A stretch of 64,000 nucleotides of DNA from Gloeomargarita lithophora Alchichica-D10 (GTDB lineage: Bacteria; Cyanobacteriota; Cyanobacteriia; Gloeomargaritales; Gloeomargaritaceae), in the NCBI RefSeq assembly GCF_001870225.1, contig NZ_CP017675.1, positions 1,929,791-1,993,790 of the forward strand, written 5' to 3'. The position numbers and the translations under genes are program-made. The notes under the pieces are model-generated. The model did not search any database and had not been told where the DNA came from. It saw only the letters and a program-made list of their open reading frames with translations. Of this stretch, positions 12,329 through 61,402 are shown piece by piece (position 1 is the stretch's first letter; every line of letters starts with the position of its first letter).

Positions 12329-12733
12329 TCAAAGCCCTTTTTCTAAAACCGCTTGGATTTCATCCCGTTTCGTTGTCCAACTGTCCGCCCAACTGGTGAT
12401 CGGGTAGGCCAAAGTCAAGGTGCCATATTCAAAACTGGGCATGGTATAGGAGCTTTCCCCCCGCAGAATGACCTTTTTCAAGCCCTCCTTGAGTGCTTCT
12501 TTGCCCAAATCATCCACACAAATTCCTTTGCAGGCTTCAATCAGGGGGCGAAAAAACACCTTGGGTAAATTCTCCTCGTACTGTTCCGAGTAGCCTTCGG
12601 ATACGGCCATAATCGTGTCCCAATCCACTTCCACGGGCACAGCAAAACCGGCCACCGTATCCAATTCGGTCTTGATTTTGGGGTATTTATTTTCCTGAAA
12701 TGCCTTGATCGCTCGCCGTTCTGTCAGACCCAT
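12329..12733 (-). CDS. Conserved hypothetical protein
   Basis: 134 residues from ATG 12733, which has GGGAGAAT 4 bp upstream; the open frame reaches 12763 without a better site. I do not recognise the family. Visible features: a soluble protein without signal or membrane segment, an N-terminal helix (LTERRAIKAFQENKYPKIKT), an acidic central region with two cysteines (ACKGICVDDLG), and a C-terminal aromatic stretch (ITSWADSWTTKRDEI). It is convergent with mreD. Confidence 0.7.
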   Translation of the reverse strand: MGLTERRAIKAFQENKYPKIKTELDTVAGFAVPVEVDWDTIMAVSEGYSEQYEENLPKVFFRPLIEACKGICVDDLGKEALKEGLKKVILRGESSYTMPSFEYGTLTLAYPITSWADSWTTKRDEIQAVLEKGL

Positions 12734-13095
12734 TTTAATTCTCCCTTGGGTAATATCGCCCATATCATAGCCTATTTCCCGTTGGCTGGCTGTATTTCTT
12801 GGTCATGGCAGTACCGGATAGCCCCTTGTAGTTAGCGAAAATCACTGGCATTGTGCCTAATCGAATCAAAACATTACCAAACCATAAAACCCTATAGCAA
12901 TCCGATTTGAATTCAGAATCAGCGGTCGCAGGGGGGCACCCTTGCCATTGGTTCTCCATAATACCTGTTCGCCAATCGGGTGGGATTTCTATATTGCTGA
13001 AATCTGGTAAGCTAGGGAAGAATTGCTTAATCCTGCAAATGTACTACTTTTAGGTTAGTGCGTTTATGGGTTCTAATCCTAGTTGATGCTTAAAT
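12734..13095. other. Intergenic region upstream of the RM locus
   Basis: 362 bp between divergently transcribed genes. The middle holds a group 1 short element (12895-12991). The remainder shows no coding frame. The stretch 13000-13095 is A+T-rich and presumably holds the methyltransferase promoter, but I cannot fix -35/-10 boxes with confidence. Confidence 0.5.
12895..12991 (+). mobile_element. Group 1 short insertion, 97 bp
   Basis: The left end TAGCAATCC and right end GGGATTTCTA form a terminal inverted repeat with one mismatch. TA duplications lie at 12893-12894 and 12992-12993. The interior contains the shared core GGTCGCAGGGGGGCACC...TTGGTTCTCC followed by GTTCGCCAATCGGGTGG. Length is identical to the copy at 14426-14522. 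There is no coding capacity, so movement would need a transposase in trans; TA duplication points to the IS630/Tc1-like group. Confidence 0.8.
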
Positions 13096-14115
13096 ATGCT
13101 GGAAGATAAGGCACGCGCTCCCCAAAATAGAACGATTATTCTGAAAGAGGAAGAAAAAGCCAAATATAAACAAAGACTGTTGCAGTTAAATAAACCTGCG
13201 GACTTGCAAGATGTGATTAACCGCACAATTAACCAGGACTTGTTTCAAATAATGGATTTTTTACCAAAAAATTCGGTTGATTTGCTGTTTATTGATCCAC
13301 CGTATAATCTCAATAAAACATTCAATTCCAGTAGTTTTAAGAAGAAAAATTTAGATACATATACGGATTGGCTAGATTTTTGCTTGACTGGTCTTAAGGA
13401 GGTGTTAAAGCCTACCTCTTCTATTTATATATGTTGTGATTGGCAATCCTCACCTGCTGTTTTTGAGGTGGTCAAAGACCGTTTTCAGATTCGTAACCGG
13501 ATTACATGGGAGCGAGAGAAAGGACGTGGTGCTAGTAAAAACTGGAAAAACTCCTCGGAAGATATTTGGTTCTGTACGGTTTCGGATACATACACATTCA
13601 ACGTAGATGCAGTCAAGCTGAAGCGAAAAGTCATTGCTCCCTATACTGTAAATGGCACTCCCAAAGATTGGGATATGACAGAGCAAGGAAACTATAGTTT
13701 GACACATCCTTCTAACCTGTGGACGGATTTGACTGTTCCTTTTTGGTCAATGCCAGAGAATACAGATCATCCGACTCAAAAACCAGAAAAATTGGTTGCT
13801 AAAGTGATTCTTGCCAGTTCTAATGTCGGAGATGTTGTTTTTGATCCTTTTCTTGGCTCAGGAACAACGCCAGTGGTTGCCAAGAAATTGGGCAGACAAT
13901 TCTTTGGCGTAGAGCTTGACGAAATGTATGCTTGCTTAGCTGAAAAACGCCTAGAGATTGCGGAAATTGAACCTGGGATTCAAGGCTACTCCGAAGGAGT
14001 ATTTTGGGAAAGAAATACGCTGAATGAGCAAGTACGTTCTGTTGGCATAAAGCAAAATTCTCACAATGGTATAAAGTCTCAACAGCAAGAGCTTTTTCAG
14101 TCAGGGGAGTCATAA
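13096..14115 (+). CDS. Type II DNA methyltransferase, beta-class N6-adenine/N4-cytosine
   Basis: 339 residues. The catalytic motif IV DPPY is at 67-70 (LLFIDPPYNL). The SAM-binding FxGxG motif comes late (VVFDPFLGSGTTPVVAKKLG, about residue 250, followed by FFGVELD). This motif order defines the beta class of the N4/N6 methylase family, and DPPY rather than SPPY favours N6-adenine. The next gene, 6 bp downstream, encodes the cognate-looking endonuclease remnant. DNA here is A+T-rich compared with its neighbours. The methylase reads as intact, so it may now act as an orphan methyltransferase that still marks its site. Confidence 0.9.
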   Translation: MLEDKARAPQNRTIILKEEEKAKYKQRLLQLNKPADLQDVINRTINQDLFQIMDFLPKNSVDLLFIDPPYNLNKTFNSSSFKKKNLDTYTDWLDFCLTGLKEVLKPTSSIYICCDWQSSPAVFEVVKDRFQIRNRITWEREKGRGASKNWKNSSEDIWFCTVSDTYTFNVDAVKLKRKVIAPYTVNGTPKDWDMTEQGNYSLTHPSNLWTDLTVPFWSMPENTDHPTQKPEKLVAKVILASSNVGDVVFDPFLGSGTTPVVAKKLGRQFFGVELDEMYACLAEKRLEIAEIEPGIQGYSEGVFWERNTLNEQVRSVGIKQNSHNGIKSQQQELFQSGES

Positions 14116-14425
14116 TCCTCTATGGAGAAAAGCCAGATTTTTTACAGTGACAAGTTTAGTGAAGTCCAAGCAGCCATTAGGGAATTTTTGAACTCTCAAG
14201 AAGATTACTTATCAATATCTACCGCAAATAGCCCAAGAGCAGTCGGTGATGCTATTCAAGATATTCTTGGCATTAATCTACAACAAGTACTCGGTGAAGA
14301 CGTTTGTAAAAATTACTCAGCCAACTTCGCCCGCAGAGCTATGGCTGATCTGGCTTTTGAGGATGACAACGGTTTTTACTATGTTATTGATGTAAAGACG
14401 CACAGACTGAGTACGAAATTTAATA

Positions 14426-14522
14426 TAGCAATCCTAATTCAATTTTGAACAGCGGTCGCAGGGGCGCCGCCCCCGTACTTGGTTCTTCTGAATATTTGTT
14501 CGCCAATCGGGTGGGATTGCTA
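14426..14522 (+). mobile_element. Group 1 short insertion, 97 bp, inside the endonuclease
   Basis: Ends TAGCAATCC and GGATTGCTA are perfect 9-bp inverted repeats. TA lies on both sides (14424-14425 and 14523-14524). The core reads GGTCGCAGGGGCGCCGCCCC with a GC-rich hairpin, followed by GTACTTGGTTCTTC and GTTCGCCAATCGGGTGG. Removal with one TA joins AAT to ATG in frame, giving the restored Asn-Met-Pro-Asn of the endonuclease. That makes the ends of the element certain to the base. Confidence 0.9.
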
Positions 14523-14722
14523 TATGCCGAATTTAACTTCCGTAGAGCGACTCACGCGTTTTTACGAGTCGGATAAGAATGTTTTTGCAGTTCTGATGGT
14601 TGCGTATGATATTGAGCAAACCCGCGTAGAAGTTGAAAGGGTTACATTTGTGCCGATTGAGTTTCTAGGGTGGGACTGCTTAACAATTGGAGCTTTGGGT
14701 TGGGGACAAATTCAGATTGCTA

Positions 14723-14824
14723 TAGCTAAACACGTAAAGGTTGACATAATAACATGGGTCGCAGGGCACCGCCCCGCATTGGTTTTCCGAAATCTTGAGA
14801 CGACAACCTTACTCTACTTAGCTA
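14723..14824 (+). mobile_element. Group 2 short insertion, 102 bp, inside the endonuclease
   Basis: Ends are TAGCTAAACACG and, reverse complemented, TAGCTAAGTAGAG; the longer inverted repeat continues to AAGGTTG. TA duplications are 14721-14722 and 14825-14826. The core GGTCGCAGGGCACCGCCCC...TTGGTTTTCCG is that of group 1, but the termini are different. The sequence is base-for-base identical, in reverse orientation, to 61189-61290, which indicates recent movement. Confidence 0.9.
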
Positions 14825-15121
14825 TAACTCTAATACGATAACTGTTAATCCTGGCTACTCACGTAAACAATGGATGTTAGAACTATGTGATACTCTGGCA
14901 GAGTTCTACCCGCGAGAGATGGCTAAAATTGCGGAACGATTGAGTTATTTTAGTAAAGTCAGAGAATTTTGGCTCAACCATTGTGATTAGCCCAGGTATT
15001 GACGTAGCACTAGCCAGCTAACGATACGCCGCTCCTGCTTCAGCTTTTGGTCGTGCGGATGACCTAAGCCTAGGCAATGCGATAAATTAAAAAACCAAAT
15101 CCAAAACGAGCGGTTATTTAG

Positions 15122-61031: not shown

Positions 61032-61402
61032 TCATAAGGGCATAATTTTGTAGGGAGTTTCGCCATTTACAGCCAATTCCCAATCTGCACTTAATTCATC
61101 TTGGCGTAATTCAATCCAGGCTTGTACTAGGCGTAACTGCTTCCGGGGCAATTTACCAGCCAGTATTTCTCCGTCAGTAATGCTGATATAGCTAAGTAGA
61201 GTAAGGTTGTCGTCTCAAGATTTCGGAAAACCAATGCGGGGCGGTGCCCTGCGACCCATGTTATTATGTCAACCTTTACGTGTTTAGCTATAGATGCTTC
61301 AAATTCTCCATACTTGGCATGAATATGGGGAATATTATGATGCTTATTATCAATGAGGTAGAGGCGGATAATAATTCCGTAAAACATTGAGATAACTGGC
61401 AT
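61032..61402 (-). pseudogene. DUF4160 protein gene interrupted by a group 2 element
   Basis: The visible start is MPVISMFYGIIIRLYLIDNK, then HIHAKYGEFEAS. After removal of 61189-61290 and one TA, the frame continues SISITDGEILAGKLPRKQLR, LVQAWIELRQDELSADWELA and ends at TGA 61034-61032, giving 88 residues with the standard DUF4160 pattern. As it stands the element adds 104 bp and shifts the frame. The DUF2442 partner downstream is intact. Confidence 0.9.
61189..61290 (-). mobile_element. Group 2 short insertion, 102 bp, inside DUF4160
   Basis: Reverse complement identical at every base to 14723-14824. TA duplications are 61187-61188 and 61291-61292. The gene reading restored by its removal fixes the ends. 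It is inserted so that its core reads on the minus strand, the sense strand of the interrupted gene; the endonuclease copy also lies in the sense orientation of its host gene. Confidence 0.9.

What the first reader, a model, noticed from the sequence alone, without database searches (positions are those of the whole stretch)
14122..14990. Restriction endonuclease broken twice; excision in silico restores 221 codons
Deleting 14426-14524 and 14723-14826 (each element plus one TA) yields an uninterrupted 666-nt frame with the PD-(D/E)xK residues Asp76, Asp90 and Lys92, and an in-frame C-terminus to TAG 14990. One of the two insertions is from group 1 and the other from group 2. The methyltransferase upstream is intact. 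This gives base-exact element boundaries and shows loss of restriction with retention of methylation.
Basis: seen in the sequence. Interest (0 to 1): 0.7.

Follow-up and report, generated by a model that had tools for sequence, protein, structure and literature searches.

The report
Restriction enzyme gene broken by mini-transposons
A cyanobacterium picked up a DNA-cutting defence enzyme together with its protective DNA-methylating partner, and two tiny jumping-DNA elements have very recently broken the cutter gene while the partner gene stays readable; this is an ordinary but unusually clean example of how bacteria lose restriction enzymes.

Summary
Removing 14426-14524 and 14723-14826 joins a 666-nt frame of 221 codons. 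Twenty-one uninterrupted homologues (55-87% identical) align across both junctions without a gap there, and a homologous methyltransferase lies upstream in each; Asp76, Asp90 and Lys92 are invariant. A model of an intact homologue matches R.SwaI, HincII and EcoRV. Each insert is a non-autonomous IS630/Tc1-type MITE with inverted repeats and a TA duplication. Group 2 has 26 identical full-length copies genome-wide; a 1,151-bp IS630 element carries the group 1 ends.

"Retention of methylation" is therefore unproven: an open frame is seen, not activity or selection. The M-R cassette is foreign (40% G+C against 53%; absent at this site in sister species; closest to other cyanobacterial families). 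A 92% identical homologue in another family is broken independently by a 28-bp duplication at the same spot. New member of a known kind.

The parts
12893..12993 (+). older, diverged group 1 type element (80% identical to the one in the endonuclease) between the left neighbour gene and the methyltransferase
   Evidence: blastn in window
13096..14115 (+). DNA methyltransferase, N6_N4_Mtase family, 339 aa, open frame with DPPYN and FLGSGTT motifs
   Evidence: Pfam PF01555 E=7.6e-42; PADLOC MTase_II E=7.1e-65; homologue upstream of every endonuclease homologue for which that stretch is held
14122..14990 (+). interrupted Type II restriction endonuclease gene (EcoRV/HincII/SwaI-like fold), 666 nt of gene sequence plus 203 nt of inserts
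   Evidence: intact homologue folded and matched to R.SwaI, HincII and EcoRV
14122..14425 (+). endonuclease segment 1, with Asp76, Asp90, Lys92 (invariant in the alignment)
14424..14425 (+). TA target-site copy, left of element 1
14426..14522 (+). element 1: group 1 MITE, 97 bp, ends TAGCAATCC / GGATTGCTA
   Evidence: same ends on an IS630 element elsewhere in the genome
14523..14524 (+). TA target-site copy, right of element 1
14525..14722 (+). endonuclease segment 2
14721..14722 (+). TA target-site copy, left of element 2
14723..14824 (+). element 2: group 2 MITE, 102 bp, ends TAGCTAAACACG.. / ..TACTTAGCTA; one of 26 identical copies
14825..14826 (+). TA target-site copy, right of element 2
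14827..14990 (+). endonuclease segment 3, to stop codon TAG

Best explanation
Two MITEs of different families, each moved by an IS630/Tc1-type transposase into a TA dinucleotide and duplicating it, landed in the endonuclease gene. The first adds an in-frame stop, the second shifts the frame, so no complete endonuclease can be made. Both hits are recent. The methyltransferase frame remains open, so the genome now carries, at least for the moment, a methyltransferase without its restriction partner. Shown: element families, TA duplications, exact interruption, intact homologues with the same gene order, foreign origin, absence of decay. Inferred: loss of cutting activity, IS630 transposase as the mover, continuing methylation.
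For: Exact joining. Intact homologues across both junctions, 55-87% identical, catalytic residues invariant; further intact cyanobacterial homologues up to 90%. Same M-R gene order. Fold: predicted model of the intact Tildeniella homologue, pLDDT 86.6; R.SwaI Z 15.4, HincII 12.2, EcoRV 11.5. Elements are genome-wide repeats with inverted repeats and TA; IS630 element with the group 1 ends; ISY100, a cyanobacterial IS630-family element, inserts into TA and duplicates it (PMC2170065). No decay: dN/dS about 0.04, one unique residue. Cassette: G+C 40% against 53%; site empty in sister species with conserved mre-rsmD order; tree placement with other cyanobacterial families, not with the same-genus homologue.
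Against: No experiment or reads; an assembly error at both elements is very unlikely but was not tested against reads. No transposase carrying the group 2 ends was found. Methyltransferase activity and recognition site are unknown.
Confidence: 0.95

Rival explanations
1. Established domestication: the endonuclease was lost long ago and the methyltransferase is kept as a regulatory orphan.
For: Methyltransferase relatives at about 55-65% identity occur in most cyanobacterial genomes sampled without any homologue of this endonuclease, some in a conserved neighbourhood. One close relative (G012, 79%) has no such endonuclease in its genome.
Against: The broken endonuclease shows no relaxation (dN/dS 0.04, no invariant column broken) and element 2 belongs to a family with 26 identical copies; this loss is recent, not old.
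Confidence: 0.06
2. Reversible or mixed state: the elements excise precisely, or only some chromosome copies of a polyploid cell carry them, so that some cells still make the endonuclease.
For: Element 2 belongs to a recently active family; the endonuclease sequence is undecayed.
Against: Two independent precise excisions would be needed. [quoted passage not shown] No reads available.
Confidence: 0.03
3. The segments are not an endonuclease, or the two joins are fortuitous.
For: No hit above curated thresholds in Pfam, NCBIfam or PADLOC for the joined protein and no sequence match in the PDB.
Against: Homologues at 55-90% identity over the whole length in many genomes, next to a methyltransferase, and a confident predicted fold matching R.SwaI, HincII and EcoRV.
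Confidence: 0.01

Closest known systems
R.SwaI, HincII and EcoRV (PD-(D/E)xK Type IIP endonucleases)
   Same: Predicted fold of the intact homologue over about 180-190 residues (Z 15.4, 12.2, 11.5); invariant D..DxK set at D76/D90/K92; single-chain size of about 220 aa
   Different: Sequence identity only about 8-20% in the structural alignments; recognition site unknown; here the gene is interrupted
ISY100 (IS630 / Tc1-mariner family) and cyanobacterial MITEs
   Same: TA target duplication, terminal inverted repeats, about 100-bp non-autonomous copies; an IS630-type element in this genome has the group 1 ends
   Different: TIR sequences are those of this genus; group 2 partner transposase not found
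Orphan (solitary) Type II methyltransferases
   Same: Methyltransferase left without a functional adjacent endonuclease; such orphans are widespread (PMC4752239)
   Different: Here the endonuclease remnant is still present and undecayed, so no evidence that the methyltransferase has been kept for another role
MITE inactivation of genes in cyanobacteria, e.g. the mcy cluster of Anabaena (reviewed in PMC10969869)
   Same: Non-autonomous element interrupts a gene in a natural strain
   Different: Two families hit one restriction gene

Membership tests
Type II restriction-modification system | Adjacent methyltransferase and endonuclease genes, conserved as a pair | tested here: met
   Pair conserved in 23 of 24 loci (the remaining one, L040, starts inside the endonuclease gene at its contig end) and in 10 further cyanobacterial loci
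Type II restriction-modification system | Cleavage at or near the site that the methyltransferase modifies | not testable with these tools
   No activity or methylation data
PD-(D/E)xK endonuclease, EcoRV/HincII/SwaI-like | Conserved acidic residue followed by (D/E)xK | tested here: met
   D76, D90, K92 invariant in 22 sequences
PD-(D/E)xK endonuclease, EcoRV/HincII/SwaI-like | Fold | tested here: met
   Model of an intact homologue: R.SwaI Z 15.4, HincII 12.2, EcoRV 11.5
IS630/Tc1-type MITE | Terminal inverted repeats and TA target duplication | tested here: met
IS630/Tc1-type MITE | Many copies, no coding capacity | tested here: met
   55 and 44 matches in the genome; 97 and 102 bp
IS630/Tc1-type MITE | Autonomous element with the same ends in the genome | tested here: inconclusive
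   Met for group 1 (locus L069; its transposase is in two frames and may be inactive); none found for group 2 among three PF13358 loci
Orphan methyltransferase | No cognate endonuclease gene able to give a full protein | tested here: met
   The only homologue of this endonuclease in the genome is the broken one
Orphan methyltransferase | Active methylation and retention under selection after loss of the partner | not testable with these tools
   No methylation data; too little time since loss

The most novel reading that the evidence does not exclude
The position around codon 101 of this endonuclease family is a recurrent, possibly reversible inactivation point: a MITE here and a 28-bp tandem duplication in another family start at the same TTAATATGCC sequence, both in otherwise undecayed genes, so restriction may be switched off and on within populations while methylation continues.
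Probability: 0.03. Interest if true: 0.65.

Novelty: new member of a known kind. Interest (0 to 1): 0.3.

Why it matters
It catches an R-M system just after the endonuclease was lost and before any sequence decay, with an independent parallel case in another cyanobacterial family. Strains of this species could therefore show directly whether a methyltransferase freed of its partner is kept or decays. It also gives clean insertion sites for two MITE families, one of which has spread recently in this genome.

Tried and rejected
Pfam, NCBIfam, PADLOC and PDB sequence searches give no significant match for the joined endonuclease; only fold comparison places it. No homologue in the plasmid or phage collections, so no vehicle for the transfer was found. 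The idea that the methyltransferase is the known cyanobacterial GGCC enzyme (M.Ssp6803II) was considered: the Anabaena GGCC enzyme is described as a MethyltransfD12 member (PMC4390886), while this one scores far higher against N6_N4_Mtase, so no specificity is assigned. The group 2 transposase was looked for at unpaired group 2 ends without success; some of those loci contain withheld stretches.

Full report
OBSERVATION. As it stands, the frame ends at TGA 14446-14448 inside element 1; the middle piece lies in an open frame up to a stop in or beyond element 2, and the last piece is in another frame because element 2 is 104 nt. Each element is bounded by TA on both sides (TA-TAGC...GCTA-TA), so one TA plus the element is what was added; the edge is ambiguous by one TA register but the joined sequence is not.

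THE ELEMENTS. Element 1 (group 1) is 97 bp with perfect inverted repeats TAGCAATCC/GGATTGCTA; folded as single-stranded DNA it has z = -4.2. It has 55 matches in the genome at E<=0.001, one of them identical over the full length. Element 2 (group 2) is 102 bp with imperfect 23-nt repeats; 26 copies are identical over the full length and 34 are at 97% or more. In the sister species the best group 2 relatives are 77-84% identical over the full length, so the identical set spread recently in this lineage. Both groups share the core GGTCGCAGGG..CCGCCCC....TTGG. A 1,151-bp element at about G000:C1:2156841-2157991 (locus L069, positions 1371-2521) has the group 1 ends and an IS630-type (PF13358, DDE_3) transposase in two frames meeting at a run of A; it is the likely autonomous parent of group 1. 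[quoted passage not shown] No transposase with group 2 ends was found.

THE GENE. The joined protein has no significant hit in Pfam, NCBIfam or PADLOC (a sub-threshold HincII hit only, E 0.065) and none in PDB sequences. A scan of bacterial and archaeal genomes gives 24 relatives; the closest are Tildeniella nuda (87%) and Leptolyngbya sp. FACHB-321 (86%). Twenty-one full-length homologues align with no gap at either junction; Asp76, Asp90 and Lys92 are invariant, and no column invariant in the others is broken here. Twenty-three of the 24 loci have a homologous methyltransferase upstream; the remaining one begins inside the endonuclease gene at its contig end. The intact Tildeniella homologue was folded with its alignment (pLDDT 86.6, pTM 0.85) and compared with solved structures: R.SwaI Z 15.4, HincII 12.2, EcoRV 11.5 (Foldseek). 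It is therefore an EcoRV/HincII/SwaI-like PD-(D/E)xK endonuclease; the recognition site is unknown.

THE PARTNER. The methyltransferase 13096-14115 is a full open frame of the N6_N4_Mtase family (E 7.6e-42; PADLOC MTase_II), with DPPYN before FLGSGTT; its stop lies 6 nt before the endonuclease start. Relatives at about 55-65% identity are common in cyanobacteria: 45 of 59 sampled genomes match at E<=0.001, of which about 30 are at this level; the endonuclease is found in 4 of the 59. Several of these relatives sit next to a universal-stress-type gene and a 2Fe-2S ferredoxin-like gene, that is, as orphans in a conserved place. In one genome (G057) the relative is followed by a different ORF with a DIK motif, perhaps another endonuclease.

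ORIGIN. The cassette has 40% G+C against 53% for the window. In three sister genomes mreD and rsmD are adjacent; in G004 the order is mreD, the homologue of 12329-12763, then rsmD, with no methyltransferase or endonuclease between. Trees of both proteins put this genome with G048, Tildeniella and Leptolyngbya (100/99 support), not with the homologous pair of the same genus in G004 (62-65% identical, elsewhere in that genome). Horizontal acquisition is well supported; the vehicle is unknown, and plasmid and phage collections hold no homologue.

AGE AND SELECTION. The broken endonuclease still looks constrained: Gl-G048 dN 0.041, dS 1.04, ratio 0.04; the methyltransferase ratio is 0.075. Against six close homologues the endonuclease has one unique residue (G133Q), the methyltransferase eight, one of them S259P next to the FLGSGTT motif. 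So the insertions came after nearly all the divergence. That is why I do not accept 'retention of methylation' as shown: the methyltransferase has not had time to decay either.

PARALLEL LOSS. In G048 (another family) the endonuclease (92% identical when its pieces are aligned) is broken by a 28-bp tandem duplication whose unit starts at TTAATATGCC, the very site of element 1; its methyltransferase is open. It too shows no decay (no unique residue). Of 390 cyanobacterial genomes, 16 hold a homologue: 11 full-length and open, five broken or remnant (G000, G048, G036, G093, G153). In G093 remnants of both genes remain; in G036 and G153 no methyltransferase lies within the flank read. So both outcomes, an open methyltransferase beside a broken endonuclease and decay of the pair, occur. 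The shared insertion point may be coincidence.

VERDICT. A confirmed, clean, recent MITE double hit in a horizontally acquired R-M system. Orphan methyltransferases (PMC4752239) and MITE gene inactivation in cyanobacteria (PMC10969869) are both known. Two MITE hits in one 666-bp gene are unlikely for a named gene (about 2e-4 if the roughly 90 counted copies were random) but not remarkable over a whole genome in which many genes tolerate no insertion.

Noticed in passing
L042 (G048:C1:1929630-1930314, minus strand): Close homologue of the endonuclease broken by a 28-bp tandem duplication that begins at the same TTAATATGCC site where element 1 sits in the window; methyltransferase open.
   Followed up: partly
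L069:1371-2521 (about G000:C1:2156841-2157991): 1,151-bp IS630 element with group 1 ends; transposase in two frames joined at a run of A, and the first acidic motif reads LNECHL, which may mean a lost catalytic Asp (judged from memory of the family).
   Followed up: partly
G000:C1:2479473-2479864: Four group 1 copies head to tail at exactly 97-bp spacing, as if each inserted into the TA end of the last; a small tandem MITE array.
   Followed up: no
G000:C1:1441917-1442253: Cluster of group 2 copies followed by a group 1 copy, in a row.
   Followed up: no
window 61187-61292, minus strand: A second group 2 copy in this window, identical to element 2.
   Followed up: no
L047, L048, L050, L052: Orphan relatives of the methyltransferase in a conserved neighbourhood: universal-stress-type gene upstream, 2Fe-2S ferredoxin-like gene downstream; a possible lineage-wide orphan methyltransferase of unknown specificity.
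   Followed up: no
L051:2351-3577 (reverse complement): ORF after a methyltransferase relative with a DIK motif but unrelated to this endonuclease; perhaps another endonuclease family paired with the same methyltransferase type.
   Followed up: no
window 13096-14115, codon 259: S259P just after the FLGSGTT motif of the methyltransferase, unique among seven close homologues; could affect activity.
   Followed up: no
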